The notes under the pieces are model-generated. The model had not been told where the DNA came from, searched no databases, and worked only from the letters and a program-made list of their open reading frames with translations. Below are positions 701-8,619 of a stretch of DNA of 8,701 bases, in pieces. A program made the position numbers and the translations under genes. Each line of letters opens with the position of its first letter. Within the stretch, counting starts at the first letter, position 1. The stretch lies in contig JAICSD010000164.1 in NCBI GenBank assembly GCA_025937075.1, forward strand, positions 1-8,701. The letters run 5' to 3'. The stretch comes from Vicinamibacteria bacterium (GTDB lineage: Bacteria; Acidobacteriota; Vicinamibacteria; Vicinamibacterales; 2-12-FULL-66-21).

Positions 701-1525
701 TCAGTATCCGGCGGCCTTCGGTTCCTCCCCAACTTTCTTTCCATTTCTCCAGGTATTCGGACACAGCGGATGCGTGAAGATCGATGGTCCGTCCACGCTG
801 CTGAACTGGATGTCGTCGGCGAACTCTCCCTTCTCGGGATCGAGATTCGCCAGGTGGCGAATGCGCTTGGCGATCTCGTGGTCCGCACACGCGGTATCGC
901 CGCTGACGCCCAGGCCGCCCACGCGCGTCTTGTTGCGGTAGAGCGGTACGCCGCCACCGAACGCGATGGAGCCGCCGCAGACTTTGCCGTCCGTCTTGCC
1001 CGAATCCTTCGGCGAGACGATGCAGTCGCGATTGAACGGATTCGGTTCCGCGACGCCCCACAGCGAATGCCCCGGCTGCGTCAGCGTGTAGAGGCGTGCG
1101 GTCGACATCGGTGCCGTGTCTGTACTATAGGCGTTGGCCGTGTACGCCTTCGCCTTCGAAATCGCCTGGCTTCCGGGCCACGCGCTCGAGGGATCATCGG
1201 TCGCCACCGCGGTGGCGCACACCTCACCCTGGCGGTTGACGACCGCCGCCCATTCCATCTTGCCGGACATCAGGCCGCCGGCTTCGGATTCGTTCGGCGC
1301 CTCGCGCAGCCATTTCTTCAGATCGTCGACCGAGGGCAGATCGCTGCACTGCGCTGACGACGCGCCTTGTTTCGGTCCGGCGCTCTGCTCGGCGGCGCCG
1401 CCCGCCTGGCGCTCCGACGCATCGCTCCCCTCGGGCCGGCGCGATTCCACCTTCGAGCACGCGACGAGAAAGCACGCGATCGCGAGCGCTGCGCCCATCC
1501 CTCGCCAGGTCTTCGACGTGATCAT
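701..1525 (-). CDS. GlcG/HbpS-like heme-binding-family lipoprotein
   Basis: A 274-residue protein with a lipoprotein signal (residues 1-22, lipobox LVAC, lipidated Cys23), then a low-complexity Ser/Gly/Ala/Glu linker (about 24-58) and a C-terminal domain resembling the GlcG/HbpS (DUF336, Haem_degrading) family: a helix with AISKAKAYTANAYS (121-134), the GGSIAFGGGVPLYR strand-turn (184-197), and VGGLGVSGD followed by Asp215-His216 (202-216). HbpS of Streptomyces binds heme and senses redox state; the function of most family members is unknown. Six cysteines after the lipid anchor (60, 103, 168, 183, 213, 255) could form disulfides. The start is the ATG forming an ATGA overlap with the coxB stop, preceded by GGAGGGG 5 nt upstream; upstream in-frame starts lie inside coxB. 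Context suggests a role in heme supply, redox sensing or electron transfer for the oxidase. Identity of the fold is fairly sure, role is not. Confidence 0.82.
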   Translation of the reverse strand: MITSKTWRGMGAALAIACFLVACSKVESRRPEGSDASERQAGGAAEQSAGPKQGASSAQCSDLPSVDDLKKWLREAPNESEAGGLMSGKMEWAAVVNRQGEVCATAVATDDPSSAWPGSQAISKAKAYTANAYSTDTAPMSTARLYTLTQPGHSLWGVAEPNPFNRDCIVSPKDSGKTDGKVCGGSIAFGGGVPLYRNKTRVGGLGVSGDTACADHEIAKRIRHLANLDPEKGEFADDIQFSSVDGPSIFTHPLCPNTWRNGKKVGEEPKAAGY

Positions 1526-2544
1526 TGCAACCCCTCCAGATAGGTCACGAGCGCGCGGAGATCCTCTCCCGTGAACGCTGTAATGTTCGGCATCTGCGCG
1601 TTCGGCTTGAGCGACTGCGCGTGCGTCACCCACGCCTCGAGGTACGGGGTCGTGTTCGGATACGCGTTGGCCGCCAGACCCTTGCGGCTTCCGATGTGGG
1701 TCAGGTCAGGCCCGACACGTGCCCGGGCGGGTGTACCTCGAACCGTGTGACAGAGCGCGCACGCGCTGTTCATGAACAGTTGTTGCCCGCGTTCGGCGGC
1801 GGCGCTGGCGGGAACAGCGGCGGGCTGCCGTTCGTGCGCGAGCCACGCGTCGAAATCGGACGGCGCGTCAGCCTGCAGCAGCAGGATCATGTGCGCGTGC
1901 TGCGGCCCGCAGTACTCCGCGCATTCGCCGCGGAACAAGCCGGGTCGATCCGCTTGAAGGCGGATCCGATTGACGAACCCCGGCACGAGATCGACCTTGC
2001 CGTGCAGCCGGGGCACCCAGAAGGAGTGAATGACGTCCCGCGTCTGCAGCTCGATGTCGATTGGCTGGCCGGCAGGAATGTGGATCTCGTTCGCGGTGAT
2101 CAGATGCCCGTGCGTCGCGCCGAGCTTGTACTCGATCTCCCACCACCACTGATGGCCTGTCACGACGATAGCGGGCTCTCCCATGTGCATCTCCGCATCG
2201 CCCATCGGGAACGCGCGGAGCGTGCGGAGCGTCATGACGAAGATCGTGCAGAGGATGATCGCGGGAACCAGAAATCCTCCGATGACAACCCAGCGCTTGT
2301 CGTTCGGCGCATTCCACGGCGCGTGCTCCGCGAGAGTGCCGCGGCGGCGCGCGGCGACCCAGAAGATGAGGACCCACATGATCACGGTCACCGCGCAGAA
2401 CGTGATCAGCACGTACCAACCGAGGTGCGCGAGCGTACGCGCCTCGGGTCCCCCGGGCGCCATGAGCGGCTGCACGCCGCTGCACGACGCGGCGGCCACG
2501 GCCGATCCTGTCAACGCGAGCAGCCATCGCAATCGTCTGCCCAT
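1522..2544 (-). CDS. coxB: Cytochrome c oxidase subunit II fused to cytochrome c (caa3 type)
   Basis: A 340-residue subunit II carrying the binuclear CuA site that takes electrons from cytochrome c and passes them to subunit I. The N-terminus is a probable lipoprotein signal (lipobox AASC, Cys21). Two membrane helices follow (about 40-66 and 85-107). The periplasmic cupredoxin domain has the aromatic WWW patch (133-135) and all CuA ligands: His173, then Cys208-x-Glu210-x-Cys212-x3-His216-x2-Met219. A C-terminal monoheme domain (about 246-340) has CALCH (262-266) and a likely axial Met318, as in caa3 oxidases. The start is chosen because the signal peptide begins there; it lies 4 nt after the upstream cytochrome's stop, without a strong ribosome site, so translational coupling is likely. 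In-frame extension upstream to 2706 would only overlap the cytochrome gene. It is separated from coxA/coxC by the dehydrogenase and two cytochromes, which is unusual. Confidence 0.96.
   Translation of the reverse strand: MGRRLRWLLALTGSAVAAASCSGVQPLMAPGGPEARTLAHLGWYVLITFCAVTVIMWVLIFWVAARRRGTLAEHAPWNAPNDKRWVVIGGFLVPAIILCTIFVMTLRTLRAFPMGDAEMHMGEPAIVVTGHQWWWEIEYKLGATHGHLITANEIHIPAGQPIDIELQTRDVIHSFWVPRLHGKVDLVPGFVNRIRLQADRPGLFRGECAEYCGPQHAHMILLLQADAPSDFDAWLAHERQPAAVPASAAAERGQQLFMNSACALCHTVRGTPARARVGPDLTHIGSRKGLAANAYPNTTPYLEAWVTHAQSLKPNAQMPNITAFTGEDLRALVTYLEGLQ
1531..1537 (-). promoter_or_regulatory. Ribosome binding site of the GlcG-like gene
   Basis: GGAGGGG on the minus strand, 5 nt before the ATG at 1525 and inside the last codons of coxB. 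It fixes the start of the lipoprotein at the ATGA overlap rather than at the GTG at 1633. Confidence 0.7.
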
Positions 2545-2548
2545 GCGA

Positions 2549-3070
2549 TTAGCTCGGGGGCTGCGGTTCGTTCGGCGTCCGCAGCGATTTGACATAGGCC
2601 ACGAGCTTCCAGATCTGATCGTCGGTGAGCTTTGTGCCCCACGCCGGCATTCCGTGAGCACGCCCTTCGGCGATGGTGCTGAAGATCTGCGCGTCGCTGC
2701 TGCCATACAGCCAGTCGGGATCTCGCAGGCTCGGACCCATCCCGCCTCCGGCGCGGCCGCCGTGGCATCCCGAACAGTTCATCCGCACGAACAGCGTTCG
2801 CCCTTCCGTCATCGCGGCGATGTCGCTGGCGTACGGATTCGCCGGGCGGACAGGATTCTCGGGCGCACCCGGTACCGGGCCAACGGGTGTTCGCACCGGT
2901 GGCGGCCCCGCGCTGGCCGCCGCGTCGCCCGGAGGATGGCTGCACGACGCGAGCGCCATGACCAATACGCCCGCCATCGCTCGGATCAACAGGCGGACGG
3001 CGATCGAGCCGGCCGAGCGGAATTGGTCCGCCTTGCCCGCGTGTTCCGCGACCCTAGAATCCGAACACAT
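2549..3070 (-). CDS. Lipoprotein monoheme cytochrome c, probable dehydrogenase-oxidase shuttle
   Basis: A class I c-type cytochrome of up to 173 residues: heme-attachment motif CSGCH (99-103), then GPSL, and a probable axial Met141 in GMPAWG before the closing helix (DDQIWKLVAYVKSL). A lipobox LASC (Cys43) ends a short hydrophobic stretch, and a Pro/Ala/Gly-rich linker (44-78) tethers the heme domain. It sits between the PQQ dehydrogenase and coxB, so it probably accepts electrons from PQQ and hands them to the cytochrome domain or CuA of subunit II. The start is uncertain: the ATG used here overlaps the dehydrogenase stop by 17 bp and has AGGGA upstream; TTG at 2989 or ATG at 2977 would give a shorter, more typical lipoprotein signal. 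It is too divergent in sequence to call it a true XoxG/MxaG. Confidence 0.9.
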   Translation of the reverse strand: MCSDSRVAEHAGKADQFRSAGSIAVRLLIRAMAGVLVMALASCSHPPGDAAASAGPPPVRTPVGPVPGAPENPVRPANPYASDIAAMTEGRTLFVRMNCSGCHGGRAGGGMGPSLRDPDWLYGSSDAQIFSTIAEGRAHGMPAWGTKLTDDQIWKLVAYVKSLRTPNEPQPPS

Positions 3071-4904
3071 AAACCGTATTCCCTGGCGCGGTGTACTTCT
3101 TGATGTCCTTCATGGCGCCGACGACCCCGAGCGCCGCATACGGGTCGTCCGCGGAGACGCTTGGAAACGCGACCGCGCCCATCCAGCCGCCCACGCCGGA
3201 ATACACGGCGACGTACTGTTTGTTGTCGGGACCGAGAAACGTGATCGGATTGCCGACGATTCCGGATCCTGTATGGAACTTCCACAGCTCCGTCCCCGTG
3301 CGCGCGTCGGCCGCCACGAACCAGCCCTCGAGCGTGCCGTAGAACACGAGGTCGCCGCCGGTTGCAAGCACGCCGCTGTACATGGGCAGCACGGCGTCCT
3401 TGACGCCCCACACTTTCCTGGCGTGAGCCACGTCCCACGCCACCAGCTCTCCCTGGTAGCCGCCCGGCCCGGGATACATCTTCACATCCGCTCCGAGATA
3501 CGGCGTGCCCGCGATGTAGTTCGCTTCGATCCCCTCGTAGTCCATGCATGTGTTGTGCGCGGGAATGTAGAGGAGTCCGGTCCGCGGCGAGAATGCGGAC
3601 GGCACGAACTCCTTGGCGCCCGTAGACGAGGGGCAGATGCCGGACGTGACGACCCCGTAGTGCGTCCGCATCTTCGGATCTTCGTTCGGCTTTCCGCTCT
3701 GAAGGTCGAAGCGGCTCGCCCAGTTCACCGGCTGGAATTTCTCCGCCGACAGCAGCTCGCCGCTTTCGCGATCGAGCACGAAGACGAACCCGGTGCGGCC
3801 GGGATGGATCAGCAGCTTGCGCATGCGCCCCTGCCACTCCATGTCGACGAGGACGTTCTCCATGATCTCGTCGTAGTCCCACGCGTCGTGGGCGCTAATC
3901 TGATAGGCCCATCGCGCTTCGCCCGTATCCGGATCGCGCGCGAAGATGGAGCACGACCACTTGTTGTCGCCCGGACGCAGATCCGCGTTCCAGACGCCGG
4001 GATTCCCCGTGCCGTAAAAGAAGGTGTTGGTCTCCGGGTCGTACGACATGTAGCCCCAGACCGTGCCGCCGCCCAGCTTCCATTGATCGCCGCGCCACGA
4101 CGTCACGCCAAGGTCCTGGCCCTTGTCCTTGTCGTAGAACGGATGAAAGTTCGGGCCGATCCTGACGTCGCTGTCCGGACCCTGGTTGTACGCGCGCCAG
4201 ATCTCCTTCCCGCTGTCCACGTCGAGCGCGGCCACGTAGCCGCGCACGCCGAGCTCGCCGCCCGAGTTGCCGACGATGACCTTGTTGCGAACGACGAGCG
4301 GCGCCGCCGTCAGCGTCTCGCCAACGTTGATGTCGCCCACGCGCGTGCGCCAGACCTCCCGTCCGGACGCGGCATCCACCGCGACGACGTTCGCGTCGAG
4401 CAGGCTATAGATGATCTTCCCGTTCGCAAACGCCGCCCCGCGATTGACGGTGTCGCAGCAGGCGATGCCGACGCTGCGGGGATCCGGGTGTGGTTCGAAG
4501 ATCCATTTCACCGCGCCGCCGGGTTTAGTCAGGTCGACGGCGATCAGATTGTTCGGGTATGGCGTGACCACGTACATCGTGTTCTCGATGACGAGCGGCT
4601 GCCCCTCGTGCCCGTGCGGCACGCCGGTGCTCATCGTGGTCAGCGGATGGAGATCTTTCGCGTTGCTCGTGTTGATCAGATTCAGCGGGCTGTAGCGAAG
4701 GTTGCCGTAGTCTCCGGTCGGCATGCGCCATTCGCCGTTGGCGAGCTCCGAGATGACGTGGATGCCGGGGGCCACGCCGGCGGCCGTGCCCTCCGGCGCG
4801 CCCGGACCTGCCGTCCGGCCTTCGCGGCCGCACGCGGCGAGGATCGTCGCGGCGAAGCCCACGAGCATTTTCGAGGTGAAGCGGCGGCGCCGTGGTCGAA
4901 TCAT
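3054..4904 (-). CDS. xoxF: PQQ-dependent alcohol (methanol-type) dehydrogenase, XoxF-like, lipoprotein
   Basis: A 616-residue eight-bladed quinoprotein of the methanol/ethanol family, oxidising an alcohol to the aldehyde in the periplasm with PQQ. Residues 1-24 are a lipoprotein signal (basic n-region, LAAC, Cys25). Visible family marks: the adjacent Cys149-Cys150 pair that forms the disulfide ring over PQQ; metal ligands Glu217 (GGELGVRG) and Asn301 (GNPGVWN); catalytic Asp343 in WDYD; a second Cys423/Cys453 pair; and the C-terminal SGVGGW motif. Spacings Glu-Asn 84 and Asn-Asp 42 equal those I recall for MxaF (177/261/303). Asp345, two after the catalytic Asp, is the residue that marks lanthanide-dependent enzymes, where MxaF has Ala. 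Substrate is unproven: ethanol or a larger alcohol is possible. The symbol is provisional, and the lipid anchor is atypical for XoxF. It begins 7 nt after the upstream cytochrome stop, with GAGGTGA as ribosome site. No PQQ synthesis or xoxJ/xoxG homologue is visible in the window. Confidence 0.93.
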   Translation of the reverse strand: MIRPRRRRFTSKMLVGFAATILAACGREGRTAGPGAPEGTAAGVAPGIHVISELANGEWRMPTGDYGNLRYSPLNLINTSNAKDLHPLTTMSTGVPHGHEGQPLVIENTMYVVTPYPNNLIAVDLTKPGGAVKWIFEPHPDPRSVGIACCDTVNRGAAFANGKIIYSLLDANVVAVDAASGREVWRTRVGDINVGETLTAAPLVVRNKVIVGNSGGELGVRGYVAALDVDSGKEIWRAYNQGPDSDVRIGPNFHPFYDKDKGQDLGVTSWRGDQWKLGGGTVWGYMSYDPETNTFFYGTGNPGVWNADLRPGDNKWSCSIFARDPDTGEARWAYQISAHDAWDYDEIMENVLVDMEWQGRMRKLLIHPGRTGFVFVLDRESGELLSAEKFQPVNWASRFDLQSGKPNEDPKMRTHYGVVTSGICPSSTGAKEFVPSAFSPRTGLLYIPAHNTCMDYEGIEANYIAGTPYLGADVKMYPGPGGYQGELVAWDVAHARKVWGVKDAVLPMYSGVLATGGDLVFYGTLEGWFVAADARTGTELWKFHTGSGIVGNPITFLGPDNKQYVAVYSGVGGWMGAVAFPSVSADDPYAALGVVGAMKDIKKYTAPGNTVYVFGF

Positions 4905-4911
4905 CGCAATC

Positions 4912-4918
4912 TCACCTC
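4912..4918 (-). promoter_or_regulatory. Ribosome binding site of the PQQ dehydrogenase
   Basis: GAGGTGA on the minus strand, 7 nt before the ATG at 4904. Its last three bases are the TGA stop of the upstream cytochrome gene, so ending one gene and starting the next are physically linked. Confidence 0.7.
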
Positions 4919-5292
4919 AACGTGTACAGGTAGGCCGCGGCGTCGCGCGCCTGCTGGTCCGTGAGGCCCAGCGCCGGCATCGCGGTCTTCGGCTCGACGG
5001 ATTCGGGCGAGCGAATCCATCGCACCAGGTTCTCGGGCGTGTTCGGCAGCTCGCCCGCGATGAACGTCCGGCGCGACCACCAGAGCAGCGGGGGCGCGAC
5101 GAGCCCGTTCGCGCCGGTCACGCCGGGAATCGTGTGGCACGCGCCGCAGCCGAACTGCTGGATGACCTGCGCGCCGCGCTGCGCATCGCCGCCGAGGCGG
5201 ACGGAGTAGGCCACAGCCTCCGTGGGATTGTTGCCACGGCAGCCCATCACAGACGTCATGACGCCGATCGCGATCAGCGCCACGCGCCTCAT
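4912..5292 (-). CDS. Small lipoprotein monoheme cytochrome c
   Basis: A 126-residue c-type cytochrome. Residues 1-17 form a lipoprotein signal ending in VMGC (Cys18). The mature part has CGACH (49-53) as the heme-binding motif and Met105 (AMPALG) as the probable sixth ligand, followed by the usual final helix (DQQARDAAAYLYTL). The segment APPLLWWSRR and the RWIRSPESVEP stretch resemble the cytochrome domains fused to subunit II or encoded beside it in caa3-type clusters. The ATG overlaps the stop of the upstream membrane-protein gene as ATGA, with a G-rich GGGCGGG before it; longer in-frame extensions upstream only overlap that gene. It is probably an electron carrier between the dehydrogenase and the oxidase, or a fixed cytochrome subunit of the oxidase. 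Which of the two cytochromes is the direct electron acceptor of the dehydrogenase cannot be decided from sequence. Confidence 0.93.
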   Translation of the reverse strand: MRRVALIAIGVMTSVMGCRGNNPTEAVAYSVRLGGDAQRGAQVIQQFGCGACHTIPGVTGANGLVAPPLLWWSRRTFIAGELPNTPENLVRWIRSPESVEPKTAMPALGLTDQQARDAAAYLYTLR

Positions 5293-5663
5293 CGCACCCG
5301 CCCACACGTGAACAGGAAGGCCGACGACAGGCCCGCCCAGAAAATTCCGAGCGCAAACGCCGAACTGACGAGCACGCTGCCGAGCGCCATGAACTCCACG
5401 CGATCCCACGCTTCGGCATGCACCGGATGCGGCGCATCCGAGGCGCGCCGCCAGGTCCGCAGGCCGGCCCCGATCCCCGTAATCGCAACCAGCAGCGCGG
5501 CCATGCTGATCACCGCGAGCGTGACGCGCACGCTCGCCGGCGCCATCGACGCGCACACGCGCTCGCCGAAGAACCAGCCGAGCAGTCCTTGGACCGTCCA
5601 GGCGAGTGGCGCCGCGACGAGGCCGAACCAGAGCGAGCGCGAGTCGATGCGGGTGGCCATCAT
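5289..5663 (-). CDS. Small three-helix membrane protein of the oxidase operon
   Basis: A 124-residue integral membrane protein with three hydrophobic segments (about residues 12-32, 45-67 and 91-118, counting from the first of two adjacent Met codons). The first helix carries LWFGLVAAPLAWTVQGLLGWFF followed by GERVC. Proteins with a similar Pro-Leu-Ala-Trp helix and a Cys at its periplasmic end occur, as I recall, beside caa3-type oxidase genes, but I cannot name a characterised family. It is joined to coxC upstream and to the cytochrome gene downstream by ATGA overlaps, so it is made together with the oxidase; an accessory subunit or assembly factor is the likely role. The second Met (5660) is the other possible start, and no clear ribosome site precedes either. 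It is too short and lacks the metal motifs for CtaG/Cox11 or SCO. Confidence 0.85.
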   Translation of the reverse strand: MMATRIDSRSLWFGLVAAPLAWTVQGLLGWFFGERVCASMAPASVRVTLAVISMAALLVAITGIGAGLRTWRRASDAPHPVHAEAWDRVEFMALGSVLVSSAFALGIFWAGLSSAFLFTCGRVR

Positions 5664-6268
5664 CGGCTGATGTTCGGAGCGACGTACAGGAGCGCTACGA
5701 TGAGCACCCACACGAGGTCCACGAAATGCCAGTAGAGCGACGCGTTGTGGAGCGAACGGTGAGGCGGCTTCTGCCCTGGCCCAATCTGCGGCAGCACGAG
5801 CACGTAGAGCAGCATGCAGAGGCCGAGCAGCAGGTGTGCCGCGTGAAAGCTCGTGATCGTGTAGAAGATCGAGCCGTACGCGTTGGTCGTCGGCGTCAGC
5901 GTCTTCAGGTGATCGCGATACTCGAGCGTCTGCAGGACGAGAAACCCGATGCCCATCAGGATTGTCGCTCCCATGAAGGCCCTCGCCGTGCCGGTTCGCC
6001 CGTTTTTCTCTGCGCGCTCGCCGAGATGGAGGACCGCGCTGCTCGACAGGAGCACGACGAGCATGACGAGCGCGAGCATCAGCTTCGGCGGTTCCGGCGG
6101 CCACGGTCCGCGCGACGCGTGCGCGAGGTAGGAGTAGCTGAAGAAGAGCATCAGGAAGAGGGCGGCTTCCGTGAGGATGAAGAGCAGCATCCCCCACGTG
6201 CCGCGCCGCTCGTCGGTGACGCCGTGCGGCATCATCACCTGCGCACCCGCGGCGACGAGGGTGGTCAT
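5660..6268 (-). CDS. coxC: Cytochrome c oxidase subunit III
   Basis: A 202-residue subunit III of the short, five-helix bacterial form (helices about 25-47, 63-82, 98-115, 132-157, 178-197). Family marks are the first-helix Glu34 in LTEAALF, the FHAAHLLLG motif (141-149, equivalent to FHGxHV in other members) and the closing YWHFVDLVWVLIVALLY helix (179-195). Subunit III has no redox metal; it stabilises subunit I and its proton uptake. The start is the ATG that overlaps the coxA stop as ATGA, preceded by GGAGAGG 8 nt upstream (6277-6283). An in-frame extension to 6322 would lie within coxA and adds nothing family-like. The order coxA-coxC is normal; what is unusual is that coxB lies three genes further on rather than upstream of coxA. 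Confidence 0.96.
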   Translation of the reverse strand: MTTLVAAGAQVMMPHGVTDERRGTWGMLLFILTEAALFLMLFFSYSYLAHASRGPWPPEPPKLMLALVMLVVLLSSSAVLHLGERAEKNGRTGTARAFMGATILMGIGFLVLQTLEYRDHLKTLTPTTNAYGSIFYTITSFHAAHLLLGLCMLLYVLVLPQIGPGQKPPHRSLHNASLYWHFVDLVWVLIVALLYVAPNISR

Positions 6269-8139
6269 ATGGGCCGCCTCTCCGGCTCTGGCCATAACCA
6301 GGCGGCGGCCACGATCAGGCACGCAATGGTGGCCGTCAACGCAAGTCCCATCGCCTTGAGCAGAAGCGCTGCGAACAGCACCGTCATGGCAACGGCCATC
6401 AGGAAGGGCGTCAGCGTGTCGTCCGGCATCTTCGCGACCGACATCGGAATCGCATCGAGCGCGCTGGTTACGACCGTCACGCGTCCTTCGTCGAACACGC
6501 GATCCTCATCCGGATCGGCCTCTTCATCGAACTCATCCCATAACGGATGGCGCGTCGTGACGACCGGGACATGCTCCGAACCATAGACCGCGGGCGGTGA
6601 TGCCGCTTCCCATTCGAGCGTGTCCGCATTCCATGGGTTCTTGCCGGCCAGCACGCCGCGACGCAGGCTGGTCAGAAAATTCCAGACGCTGATCAGGATC
6701 CCGACCGTGAGAACGTAGGTGCCCACCGTCTCGAGCATGTTCAGACGCCCCCAGCCCGTGACGGCCGGGTACGTGTAGATCCGCCGCGGCATGCCGAGCA
6801 GCCCGAGGATCTGCATCGGAAAGAAGACCAGGTTGAAGCCGACGAACATCACCCAGAAGCTCCACTTGCCGAGCCGCTCGTCCATGAGGCGTCCTGTGAT
6901 CTTCGGCAGCCAGTAGTAGAACGCGGCGAATACCGGGAACACATTTGCCCCGACGAGCACGTAGTGCAGGTGTGAGACGACGAAGTACGTGTCCGTCAGC
7001 TGCCAGTCGTACGGGATGAGCGCAGTGATGATGCCGTTCAGGCCCCCAATCACGAACACGAGCAGGAAGCCGACCGCGAACAGCATCGACGTCGTGAGGA
7101 CGGGGCGTCCCTGCCAGATCGTCGCGACCCACGCAAACACCTGCACGGCGCTGAAGATCGAAATCGTCATGCTCGCGGCGCTGAAGAAGCTCATCGACAT
7201 CTGCGTCATGCCCGTCGCGAACATGTGGTGCACCCACACGCCGAAGCCGACGACCCCGGTGAGCACCGTCGCAAGCGCGACCCAGGTGTAGCCGACGATC
7301 GGCCGCCGCGAGAACACCGGCAGCAGCATCGAGATCATCCCGGTCGCCGGAAGAAAGATGATGTAGACCCACGGATGACCGAAGAACCAGAACAGCTGCT
7401 GCCAGAGCAGCGCGCTGCCGCCATGCGCCGTGTCGTAGAAGTGCGTGCCCCACTGGCGATCCAGCTCGAGGAAGACGAGTGCCGCCGTCAGGGCGGGTAG
7501 CGACAGGACGATCGACACCGAGATCGTGAGCGTGCTGTAGAAGAACAGCGGCATCCGGCTGATCGCCATGCCGGGCGCGCGGAGACGAAGGATCGTCGTG
7601 ATGAAGTTGATCGCGCCGGCGGTCGTGGAGATCGTCAGGAACAGGAGGGCCAGCGCGAAGAAATCCATGTTCAGCCCCGGGGAGTATTCCTTCAGCGTGT
7701 ACGGCACGTACGCGAACCAGCCCGCGTGCGGAGCCTGCCCGACGAACGGGCTCGCGTAGAGGAAGAGGCCGGAGGCGAGAAACGTCCAGTACGTGAAGGC
7801 GTTCAACCGCGGATACGCCATATCGCGCGCACCCGTCATCAGAGGAATGAGGTAGTTTGCGAACCCGGAGAGGATCGGCGAGGCGTACCAGAAGATCATC
7901 GTCACGCCGTGCATCGTGAAGATCTGGTCGTACGCTTCCGGCGTGAGAACGCCCGCGTCGGGGCGCGCGAGCTGGGTGCGGATGAGAATGGCTTCGATCC
8001 CGCCCGCGACCAGAAAGAGGAAGGCGGTCACCATGTAGCGCACGCCGATGTCCTTGTGGTCGACGGTCGCGAACCAGCCCCAAACGTTGTGAGGCCGTTC
8101 CCAGAGATGCTCGAGACGCTCCGCGATCGTCCGCTGCAC
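6265..8139 (-). CDS. coxA: Cytochrome c oxidase subunit I, A-family-like, with C-terminal extension
   Basis: A 624-residue catalytic subunit that reduces O2 to water and pumps protons. Twelve core helices precede an extension. Metal ligands are complete: low-spin heme His77 and His392, CuB His255, His304 and His305, high-spin heme His390, plus Tyr259 (HPWVY) that cross-links to the CuB His, and propionate-binding Arg452-Arg453. The D-channel entry survives (Asn95, Asp106, Asn113), yet the position of the canonical Glu (HPEVY) is Trp257, and the K-channel Lys position is Gln333 (SIFSAVQVFAW). After residue 500 comes an acidic linker (DEFDEEADPDED, 535-546) and two more helices (577-597, 599-616), like a fused subunit IV. 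I recall a similar layout in CoxN of CoxMNOP-type oxidases. The start is a GTG: third-position G/C is high from there on but poor in the upstream in-frame stretch to TTG at 8208. That TTG has GGAG 4 nt upstream and remains possible. Confidence 0.93.
   Translation of the reverse strand: MQRTIAERLEHLWERPHNVWGWFATVDHKDIGVRYMVTAFLFLVAGGIEAILIRTQLARPDAGVLTPEAYDQIFTMHGVTMIFWYASPILSGFANYLIPLMTGARDMAYPRLNAFTYWTFLASGLFLYASPFVGQAPHAGWFAYVPYTLKEYSPGLNMDFFALALLFLTISTTAGAINFITTILRLRAPGMAISRMPLFFYSTLTISVSIVLSLPALTAALVFLELDRQWGTHFYDTAHGGSALLWQQLFWFFGHPWVYIIFLPATGMISMLLPVFSRRPIVGYTWVALATVLTGVVGFGVWVHHMFATGMTQMSMSFFSAASMTISIFSAVQVFAWVATIWQGRPVLTTSMLFAVGFLLVFVIGGLNGIITALIPYDWQLTDTYFVVSHLHYVLVGANVFPVFAAFYYWLPKITGRLMDERLGKWSFWVMFVGFNLVFFPMQILGLLGMPRRIYTYPAVTGWGRLNMLETVGTYVLTVGILISVWNFLTSLRRGVLAGKNPWNADTLEWEAASPPAVYGSEHVPVVTTRHPLWDEFDEEADPDEDRVFDEGRVTVVTSALDAIPMSVAKMPDDTLTPFLMAVAMTVLFAALLLKAMGLALTATIACLIVAAAWLWPEPERRPI
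6277..6283 (-). promoter_or_regulatory. Ribosome binding site of coxC
   Basis: GGAGAGG on the minus strand, 8 nt before the ATG at 6268 and within the last codons of coxA. It supports starting coxC at the ATGA overlap. Confidence 0.6.
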
Positions 8140-8277: not shown

Positions 8278-8619
8278 CTATTCGACGCGAACCGTGCCCT
8301 TCATGGTCGGATGGAAGGTGCAGGTGTATGGGTACTCACCCTTCGATGTGGCACGGTACTGCCACGATTGCCCGTCCGCGATCGACTTGGAATCGAAGGC
8401 ACCGGCAGCAGTCACCGTATGCGGGAACAGATCCTTGTTCACCCACACAATCGTGTCGCCGGCTTCGACGGTGAGGTTTGCAGGCGTGAACTGCATGCCT
8501 TCGATGGTTACGGTATGCGTGACCGGTGGGGGAGCGCTGCTCCGGGCCTGGTTGCAGTGCATCAGGCCCAGAGCAGCGAGAAGAGCAAGCGTCAGTGATA
8601 CGCCGCGCCCGGTGTTCAC
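8278..8619 (-). CDS. Exported cupredoxin (plastocyanin-like type 1 copper protein)
   Basis: A 113-residue protein with a signal sequence (h-region about residues 8-20) and a plastocyanin/azurin-like domain (about 33-113). All type 1 copper ligands are visible: His67 in FPHTVT, then Cys100, His103 and Met106 in CTFHPTM. The opening VTIEGMQFTPANLTVEAGDTIVWVN is typical of the family. Cys22 could be lipidated, but the preceding residues (LMH) do not make a normal lipobox, so signal peptidase I cleavage is as likely. The start codon is GTG, 6 nt after the stop of the gene upstream; a G-run lies about 15 nt before it, rather far for a ribosome site. It is either a soluble electron carrier to the oxidase or a copper-handling protein. 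With the 138-bp gap after it, it may be in a transcription unit of its own with the gene upstream. Confidence 0.93.
   Translation of the reverse strand: MNTGRGVSLTLALLAALGLMHCNQARSSAPPPVTHTVTIEGMQFTPANLTVEAGDTIVWVNKDLFPHTVTAAGAFDSKSIADGQSWQYRATSKGEYPYTCTFHPTMKGTVRVE

What the first reader, a model, noticed from the sequence alone, without database searches (positions are those of the whole stretch)
1522..8139. A quinoprotein dehydrogenase and two cytochromes inserted inside a cytochrome oxidase operon
In most bacteria coxB, coxA and coxC are adjacent. Here coxA-coxC-membrane protein are followed by cytochrome c, PQQ dehydrogenase and cytochrome c before coxB, with junctions that are all overlaps or gaps under 10 nt. 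This implies fixed co-expression and suggests a dedicated alcohol-to-oxygen respiratory chain, perhaps a physical supercomplex, rather than a general oxidase. I saw the gene order directly; the functional coupling is inference.
Basis: partly seen in the sequence, partly recalled or inferred. Interest (0 to 1): 0.72.

Follow-up and report, generated by a model that had tools for sequence, protein, structure and literature searches.

The report
Methanol oxidase operon with odd oxidase
A soil bacterium keeps a probable rare-earth methanol dehydrogenase in one operon with its own oxygen-reducing enzyme; that pairing is already known, but the oxygen enzyme belongs to a branch that appears to have lost standard proton-inlet residues of its family.

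Summary
The gene order is real: coxA-coxC-small membrane protein-cyt c-PQQ dehydrogenase-cyt c-coxB, minus strand, tightly packed, then a DUF336/HbpS-like lipoprotein gene. The dehydrogenase is XoxF-type. XoxF3 genes clustered with cox genes in Acidobacteria and Gemmatimonadetes are published (PMC10875860), as is a COX operon type with PQQ dehydrogenases (PMC4013037), so the operon is a member of a known kind. Its order is a clade-specific permutation of the commoner xoxF-cyt c-coxB-coxA-coxC.

'Dedicated' is only partly supported: of 29 oxidases of the window's type in Gemmatimonadota, 20 had XoxF in the stretch seen, 6 did not (3 of these beside Alternative Complex III-type genes), 3 lay at contig ends.

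The new point is the oxidase. None of 39 readable XoxF-linked CoxA rows keeps the K-channel lysine and none of 36 CoxB rows the K-channel entrance Glu; other A-family CoxA from 20 of those genomes keep the lysine in 27 of 32 rows. The window's branch also has Trp for the D-channel Glu (120 of 120 nearest homologues). The loss maps to one clade. My searches showed only an archaeal parallel. How protons reach the active site is unknown.

The parts
8278..8619 (-). plastocyanin/amicyanin-like cupredoxin with a lipobox-like N-terminus (LMHC); upstream neighbour, membership of the operon not shown (138 nt before coxA)
   Evidence: PF00127 E 9e-13; N-terminus
6265..8139 (-). coxA, subunit I of an A-family haem-copper oxidase, 624 aa; all six metal-ligand His and the cross-link Tyr present; D-channel Glu replaced by Trp257, K-channel Lys replaced by Gln333 (numbers of this ORF)
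   Evidence: PF00115 E 2e-147; CtaD_CoxA over cut-off; alignment to M. smegmatis chain
5660..6268 (-). coxC, subunit III
   Evidence: PF00510 E 9e-21
5289..5660 (-). small membrane protein, 123 aa, two invariant Cys (36, 119) in 19 of 19 aligned sequences, predicted three long helices; follows CoxIII like the published ~110-130 aa hypothetical protein (homology to that protein not tested)
   Evidence: no Pfam/NCBIfam; position compared
4912..5292 (-). monohaem cytochrome c with lipobox-like signal (VMGC)
   Evidence: PF00034/PF13442, CGACH motif in the sequence
3054..4904 (-). XoxF-type PQQ dehydrogenase, 616 aa, vicinal CC, Glu217, Asn301, Asp343 and the extra Asp345; lipobox-like Cys25 invariant in 24 of 24 close relatives
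   Evidence: TIGR03075 over cut-off; best PDB match 4mae methanol dehydrogenase E 2e-195
2549..2977 (-). monohaem cytochrome c in the XoxG position, lipobox-like signal (LASC); start codon uncertain (alternative ATG at 3070)
   Evidence: PF13442 E 4e-17; TIGR03872 MoxG below cut-off; PDB CcoP and cytochrome cL matches
1522..2544 (-). coxB, subunit II with CuA motif and C-terminal cytochrome c (caa3 type); K-channel entrance Glu absent
   Evidence: PF00116 + PF00034; 2yev_B caa3 E 6e-52
701..1525 (-). HbpS-like/DUF336 lipoprotein-like ORF, overlaps coxB by 4 nt; likely last gene of the operon (inference)
   Evidence: PF03928 E 8e-14; recurs beside the cluster in L002, L003, L005, L010, L197, L210
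113..694 (-). PAS-domain-like ORF, not assigned to the operon
   Evidence: PF00989 E 4e-4, below cut-off

Best explanation
This is a XoxF (probably clade 3) methanol/alcohol dehydrogenase operon of an acidobacterium (probably Vicinamibacterales) that carries its own caa3-type terminal oxidase. Electrons pass from alcohol to PQQ in XoxF, then through one or two lipid-anchored cytochromes c, to the cytochrome c domain and CuA of CoxB, and on to haem a and the haem a3-CuB site of CoxA, where O2 becomes water. Shown: the genes, their order, domains and key residues. Inferred: substrate, lanthanide use, electron path and membrane tethering. The oxidase belongs to one clade of A-family enzymes that lack the K channel in both subunits. 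The window's sub-branch also lacks the D-channel glutamate (Trp instead) but keeps the lower D-channel residues. I infer that its chemical protons enter from the cytoplasm along the remaining D-channel water chain without the glutamate valve, so that the enzyme is electrogenic but pumps little or nothing. The oxidase block is a module beside which different donors, XoxF or Alternative Complex III, can be placed.
For: Domains and cut-offs. XoxF residues; Asp at the lanthanide-associated position in 84 of 84 XoxF rows. Published XoxF3-cox clusters; COX operon with PQQ dehydrogenase. Synteny of 80 loci. All loci scored as permuted fall in one XoxF clade (16 rows, SH-aLRT 100), one permuted/forward change on the tree. 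Proton-channel residues: CoxA in XoxF loci without Lys in 39 of 39 readable rows (42 rows in all) against 5 of 32 readable other CoxA rows from 20 of the genomes; CoxB entrance Glu absent in 36 of 36 rows from XoxF loci, present in 18 of 22 others, the four exceptions being ones whose CoxA also lacks Lys. Asp-Trp-Gln at the three sites in 120 of 120 nearest homologues. Independent motif survey: 26 of 26 newly fetched Trp-type CoxA lack the Lys. Clade with 12 channel columns masked: K-less rows 100/99, Trp rows 100/100. CtaG-XoxF fusions in 9 of the 120 listed XoxF hits. ACIII-type neighbours.
Against: 21 of 80 XoxF loci have no cox genes although at least 6 kb downstream is seen, so XoxF does not need this oxidase; 6 of 29 Trp-type oxidases show no XoxF. 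Because K loss in this clade has one origin, its link with XoxF is one evolutionary event, not many, and two basal K-less members (L118, L122) have no XoxF in about 18 kb. CtaG, usual in these clusters, is absent from the window. No biochemistry was found for the oxidase; in canonical enzymes loss of the D-channel Glu blocks turnover (passage), so either the proton route or the activity is not understood. Clade 3 membership of XoxF was not tested against reference sequences.
Confidence: 0.7

Rival explanations
1. The oxidase is a general caa3-type terminal oxidase that serves the whole respiratory chain, and XoxF is only co-transcribed with it.
For: XoxF-less clusters with the same oxidase type and Alternative Complex III-type genes in L193, L209, L211; XoxF without cox in 21 of 80 loci.
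Against: In the window XoxF and a cytochrome lie inside the oxidase operon, the core order is kept in several phyla, and 17 of the 20 genomes examined also gave at least one other A-family CoxA with the Lys.
Confidence: 0.25
2. CoxA is no longer an O2 reductase but a NO reductase, an oxygen sensor or a decaying gene.
For: Absence of the K-channel Lys, the entrance Glu and the D-channel Glu.
Against: All six His ligands, the cross-link Tyr and the CuA motif are retained in the window; the Tyr is kept in 120 of 120 homologues, and all 120 share the same Asp-Trp-Gln triplet; the Trp rows form one well supported branch spread over several phyla, not random decay.
Confidence: 0.08
3. The proton channels were replaced rather than lost: another set of residues or waters carries protons, as in A2 enzymes with their YS motif, and pumping is normal.
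For: The Glu-keeping sister branch has a Glu in 27 of 27 rows at the site of Gly198 and in 19 of 27 at Asn207, while D132 is lost in 23 of 27, which looks like rewiring. Both branches have an Arg beside Tyr35 (14 of 15, one gap, and 25 of 27).
Against: In the Trp branch no new conserved acid was found in a search for residues conserved in over 85% of rows (it did list Tyr117, Tyr128 and three Arg), and the YS motif is absent (FG or FA in its place).
Confidence: 0.35
4. The dehydrogenase oxidises ethanol or other alcohols or aldehydes rather than methanol, with Ca rather than a lanthanide.
For: TIGR03075 covers methanol and ethanol enzymes; PMC10875860 states that no biochemical data exist for XoxF3.
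Against: Closest solved relatives are XoxF methanol dehydrogenases, well ahead of ethanol enzymes; the extra Asp is present in 84 of 84 rows.
Confidence: 0.2

Closest known systems
XoxF3 gene clusters with CoxI-CoxII-CoxIII, CtaG and cytochrome c in Acidobacteria and Gemmatimonadetes (PMC10875860; sections 9, 11, 17 and passages read)
   Same: XoxF, three cox subunits, cytochrome c, a ~110-130 aa hypothetical protein next to CoxIII
   Different: Window has no CtaG, no XoxJ recognised, a permuted order and a DUF336-family gene; the parts of the paper that I read do not discuss oxidase channel residues, and its figures were not seen
COX operon type a-II (PMC4013037, passages read)
   Same: COX operon that often contains a PQQ dehydrogenase; here too CoxA has an extra C-terminal hydrophobic segment
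   Different: Described for proteobacteria; COX1-COX4 fusion not tested here; channel residues not mentioned in passages read
Canonical A1 aa3 oxidases (R. sphaeroides, P. denitrificans, M. smegmatis)
   Same: Metal ligands, cross-link Tyr, subunits I, II and III
   Different: K-channel Lys, entrance Glu and D-channel Glu missing here
A2 oxidases (a Tyr replaces the Glu, PMC3084760 passage; YS motif recalled)
   Same: No Glu in HPEV
   Different: No YS motif; K-channel Lys missing
Thermus caa3 oxidase subunit II (2yev_B)
   Same: Cytochrome c fused to CoxB
   Different: Window CoxB lacks the entrance Glu
Archaeal family-A oxidases with K-channel variants and losses (PMC8239418, passages read)
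   Same: K channel lost within family A
   Different: Discussed for archaea in the passages read; Trp at the Glu site and XoxF linkage not mentioned there; its supplementary figure could not be read
Alternative Complex III-linked cox clusters (COX operon type a-I; PMC4013037 and PMC6431628 passages)
   Same: A donor complex encoded beside its oxidase
   Different: Donor is quinol-oxidising; published a-I oxidases are A2 type, those in L193, L209 and L211 are Trp type

Membership tests
XoxF lanthanide-type methanol dehydrogenase | PQQ dehydrogenase of the methanol/ethanol family | tested here: met
   TIGR03075 617 bits, cut-off 480
XoxF lanthanide-type methanol dehydrogenase | extra Asp two residues after the catalytic Asp | tested here: met
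   DYD in window; Asp in 84 of 84 rows
XoxF lanthanide-type methanol dehydrogenase | catalytic Glu, Asn, Asp and vicinal Cys pair (roles recalled) | tested here: met
   E217, N301, D343, C149-C150 invariant in 24 of 24; CC in 83 of 84, one gap
XoxF lanthanide-type methanol dehydrogenase | activity depends on a lanthanide | not testable with these tools
   needs purified enzyme
XoxF clade 3 | groups with reference XoxF3 sequences | not tested
   no labelled reference set was used; inferred from cluster content and relatives in Rokubacteria and Methylocaldum
XoxF3-cox cluster (PMC10875860) | CoxI, CoxII, CoxIII and cytochrome c beside xoxF | tested here: met
XoxF3-cox cluster (PMC10875860) | CtaG in the cluster | tested here: not met
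   no PF09678 among the 10 window ORFs scanned; the window ends 82 nt beyond the start of the cupredoxin gene, so it may lie outside
XoxF3-cox cluster (PMC10875860) | ~110-130 aa hypothetical protein next to CoxIII | tested here: met
   123 aa protein overlapping coxC; by position and size only
COX operon type a-II | PQQ dehydrogenase in the operon | tested here: met
COX operon type a-II | COX1 fused to COX4 | tested here: inconclusive
   hydrophobic segment 576-594 beyond the COX1 domain; similarity to COX4 not tested
A-family O2 reductase | six His ligands, cross-link Tyr, CuA site | tested here: met
A1 subtype | D-channel Glu (HPEV) | tested here: not met
   HPWV in window; Trp in 120 of 120 homologues
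A1/A2 subtypes | K-channel Lys in helix VIII | tested here: not met
   Gln in window; Lys in 0 of 39 readable rows from XoxF loci
A2 subtype | YS motif in place of the Glu | tested here: not met
   FG in window; YS in the 8 A2-like controls

The most novel reading that the evidence does not exclude
A monophyletic group of bacterial A-family oxidases reduces O2 without a K channel in either subunit. It has also altered its D channel in two separate ways: Trp for the valve glutamate, or new glutamates with loss of the entrance Asp. These oxidases are donor-swappable modules for XoxF or Alternative Complex III, and the Trp type works as a non-pumping or newly wired enzyme. If so, the two-channel requirement of family A is not general.
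Probability: 0.4. Interest if true: 0.82.

Novelty: new variant of a known kind. Interest (0 to 1): 0.6.

Why it matters
The operon adds a clear case of a periplasmic alcohol dehydrogenase wired to its own oxidase in soil Acidobacteriota. The oxidase matters more. Mutant work treats the K-channel lysine and the D-channel glutamate as necessary in A-family enzymes, yet a natural clade lacks the first and, in the window's branch, the second. Cultured hosts carry members: Modicisalibacter luteus (L009) and Azohydromonas australica (P0256) the Trp type, Lysobacter strains (L014, L019, L059) and Methylocaldum sp. 14B (L026) the Glu-keeping type, so proton stoichiometry can be measured. It also bears on how much energy soil methylotrophs gain from methanol.

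Tried and rejected
Own-genome search: no genome is held for the window. A five-term literature search for cox-linked XoxF in Acidobacteria gave nothing; later searches listed the paper with the published clusters. Five searches aimed at channel loss in A-family oxidases showed, in the listings and in the passages of the papers I opened from them (PMC8239418, PMC6431628, PMC9145763, PMC3084760, PMC7618691, PMC12901375), only the archaeal case; supplements could not be read and a 2020 review cited there was not looked up. The mini-review that first noted cox and ctaG near xoxF3 is not held and is known to me only through PMC10875860.

A lipobox regular expression over the 120 XoxF hits matched 66 of 120; many misses have a Cys in a slightly different motif, so I do not use the count. 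It found none in XoxF of L006 and L009, so lipid anchoring is probably not universal.

Rejected: misalignment of the K site (no gap within that helix, flanking residues kept); assembly error (120 homologues agree). One Trp-motif hit, L203, holds no coxA match and was dropped.

Rows dropped or not taken: of the 91 COX1 match rows I used those inside loci L081-L110 and 20 more fetched; two strong rows (G014:C78, G017:C73) and the weaker rows were not fetched, and five fetched ones (L126-L130) gave no match to the window CoxA and were not counted. Near-identical coxA and coxB rows were collapsed. Six short coxA rows were left out of the tree, L080 out of the XoxF tree. The 50-row tree was picked by hand and leaves out L125, a K-less CoxA outside the clade; with it the 78-row tree counts two K changes. 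One search used a wrong CuA pattern and was redone.
Full report
What is in the window. Nine ORFs on the minus strand run from a cupredoxin (8619-8278) through coxA, coxC, a 123-aa membrane protein, a cytochrome c, a PQQ dehydrogenase, a second cytochrome c, coxB with a fused cytochrome c, and an HbpS-like (DUF336) ORF ending at 701. From coxA to the HbpS-like gene the junctions are -4, -1, -4, +7, +76, +4 and -4 nt. The +76 depends on the start codon chosen for the second cytochrome. Among the listed database hits whose source name gives a taxon, the best are Vicinamibacterales, so the host is probably an acidobacterium of that order (inference).

The dehydrogenase. It is over the cut-off for the methanol/ethanol PQQ family. 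Its best matches among solved structures are 4mae (methanol dehydrogenase) and the XoxF entries 6oc5 and 6dam. Catalytic residues and the extra Asp are invariant in 24 aligned sequences, and the Asp is present in 84 of 84 rows of a wider XoxF set. Lanthanide use and methanol as substrate are inferred. The N-terminus has a lipobox-like Cys25, invariant in those 24 but not found in L006 and L009. The two cytochromes, CoxB, the cupredoxin and the HbpS-like protein of the window have lipobox-like N-termini too, so the chain may be largely membrane-tethered in this clade (inference).

Comparison with relatives. Of these, 41 have cox genes nearby: 29 with cox downstream (in L033 on the other strand), 6 in the window's core order, L032 with both, L026 with cox upstream, L031 and L052 with coxB near a contig end, and L007 and L008 with coxB but no coxA seen. 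Another 21 show at least 6 kb downstream without cox, and 18 have too little flank. The common order is xoxF-cyt c-coxB-coxA-coxC-(small protein)-CtaG-cyt c. The window's order is a circular permutation of it without CtaG. On the XoxF tree all loci scored as permuted, and the window, fall in one clade (16 rows, SH-aLRT 100) with rows from Acidobacteria, Gemmatimonadetes, Myxococcota/Deltaproteobacteria and Gammaproteobacteria; the rest of that clade is L004 (no cox seen), L007 and L008 (coxB only), L001 and L010 (too short) and four database proteins. Permuted versus forward changes once on the tree, and cox linkage changes twice among 62 scored rows. L032 has a coxA-coxC-small protein-CtaG-cyt c block upstream of xoxF and a coxB-coxA-coxC-CtaG block downstream, which shows how a permuted order could arise by duplication and loss (inference). 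Nine of the 120 listed XoxF hits are long proteins that also carry a Caa3_CtaG domain, N-terminal in the three that I read. This fusion ties the dehydrogenase to an oxidase assembly factor.

Published status. XoxF3 co-localised with CoxI, CoxII, CoxIII, CtaG, cytochrome c, XoxG, XoxJ and a small hypothetical protein was reported for 12 Acidobacteria genomes, with a ~110-130 aa protein between CoxIII and CtaG in most (PMC10875860, sections read; passages). The same paper says that no biochemical data exist for XoxF3. A COX operon type with PQQ dehydrogenases was described in 2014 (PMC4013037, passages).

The oxidase. Against solved enzymes CoxA has HPWV for HPEV and SAVQ for TGIK, with no gap inside those motif helices. 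I then compared CoxA of loci that hold XoxF with other CoxA from 20 of the genomes. Of 42 rows from XoxF loci, 39 are readable at the K site: Lys 0, Gln 30, Ala 7, Glu 1, Thr 1 (two of the 42 rows are pieces of one gene, L045). Of 33 other rows, 32 are readable: Lys 27 (19 with the Glu, 8 with the A2-like YS motif). Of the five exceptions, L095 proved to be XoxF-linked once more flank was fetched, L107 lies on a 5.9-kb contig, L118 and L122 show no XoxF in about 18 kb, and L125 lies elsewhere in the tree. The K-channel entrance Glu of CoxB is absent in 36 of 36 rows from XoxF loci and present in 18 of 22 others; the four exceptions are exactly L095, L107, L118 and L122. The channel is thus gone in both subunits together. 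At least one other CoxA with the Lys was seen in 17 of the 20 genomes, so these hosts usually have a canonical A-family oxidase as well.

Two branches. In a 50-row tree with 12 channel columns masked, all K-less rows form one clade (100/99) and all Trp rows one branch (100/100), with one change each (L125 was not among the rows). The 78-row tree gives the same clade and counts two K changes because of L125. The Trp branch, which holds the window, has Asp or Glu at D132 and keeps N139 and N207 in all 14 rows readable there, but has Trp for E286 in 15 of 15 rows and in 120 of 120 database homologues. The other branch keeps E286 in 27 of 27 rows but has lost D132 in 23 of 27, has a Glu at the Gly198 site in 27 of 27 and at Asn207 in 19 of 27, and Leu, Ile, Val or Thr at the Asn121 site in 26 of 27 (the other, L021, has Asn). 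An Arg stands beside Tyr35 in 14 of 15 (one gap) and 25 of 27 rows of the two branches, against Leu, Met or Gln in controls. The His ligands and cross-link Tyr were kept in the rows that I listed, apart from unreadable sites. Numbering is recalled for R. sphaeroides; the channel residues of P. denitrificans are listed in PMC3084760.

Is the oxidase dedicated to XoxF? A DNA pattern for F(G/A)HPWVY matched 26 of 395 Gemmatimonadota genomes (30 sites; reversed-pattern control 0), 1 of 149 genomes of the order of L004 and 1 of 297 of the phylum of L006, that genome itself. One of the 30 sites (L203) is not coxA. Of the other 29, 20 have XoxF in the stretch seen (one cut by a contig end, L208), 6 do not (L193, L194, L200, L209, L211, L212) and 3 lie at contig ends (L131, L205, L216). 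L212 is doubtful, as its contig ends about 0.9 kb beyond the cyt c gene; it carries a more distant PQQ dehydrogenase on the other side. All 26 newly fetched Trp-type CoxA, including L217 from the other order, lack the Lys. L193, L209 and L211 carry NrfD-family proteins, and L193 and L211 also an iron-sulphur protein, as in Alternative Complex III (the ORF beside NrfD in L209 was not scanned). L194 and L200 showed no donor among the ORFs scanned. In L193, L194 and L211 the order is coxA-coxC-(small protein)-CtaG-(cyt c)-coxB, the window's order without xoxF and the second cytochrome. So the oxidase block is a module, and XoxF with its cytochrome is one of the donors found inside or beside it.

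How it may work. Methanol is oxidised in the periplasm and electrons reach CuA through the cytochromes (inference). For the protons of water formation, the Trp branch has neither the K-channel Lys nor the D-channel Glu, and no new conserved acid was found. My preferred reading is uptake along the remaining D-channel water chain with little or no pumping; a rewired but normal pump is the main rival. A passage of PMC12901375 notes that the D-channel Glu mutant of a canonical enzyme is blocked in the oxidative phase, so the question is a real one. Loss of K channels is discussed for archaeal family A enzymes (PMC8239418, passages); five searches showed me no bacterial case, but supplements were out of reach, so absence from print is not proven.

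Limits. Association of XoxF with K loss is a single event on the tree. Contig ends limit linkage counts. Clade 3 placement, transcription, substrate, metal, complex formation and proton stoichiometry are untested.

Noticed in passing
P0075, P0085, P0086, P0088, P0091, P0109, P0111, P0113, P0117: XoxF in one protein with a Caa3_CtaG oxidase-assembly domain (863-883 aa) in 9 of the 120 listed XoxF hits; N-terminal in the three read. A gene-fusion link between dehydrogenase and oxidase.
   Followed up: partly
window 701-1525: DUF336/HbpS-like ORF overlapping coxB; weak PDB match to EfgA, a formaldehyde sensor of methylotrophs (6bws, E 0.004; PMC8153426 passages). Formaldehyde is the product expected of XoxF, so an aldehyde- or haem-sensing role is worth a test.
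   Followed up: partly
L193, L209, L211: Trp-type oxidase clusters without XoxF but with NrfD-family genes as in Alternative Complex III.
   Followed up: partly
L032 1-15816: Tandem arrangement with a Trp-type coxA upstream and a Glu-type coxA downstream of one xoxF.
   Followed up: partly
L017, L014, L016 and other Glu-branch coxA: New glutamates at the Gly198 and, in most, Asn207 sites of the D-channel helix with loss of D132: a rewired D channel.
   Followed up: partly
L004: Close relative with cyt c-xoxF-cyt c but no cox genes within about 10 kb; its genome holds a K-less coxA of the Glu type elsewhere (L134/L154).
   Followed up: partly
window 8278-8619: Amicyanin/plastocyanin-like cupredoxin with lipobox-like N-terminus just upstream of coxA; possible extra electron carrier.
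   Followed up: no
L125: A separate coxA with Val at the K-channel Lys site, outside the K-less clade.
   Followed up: no
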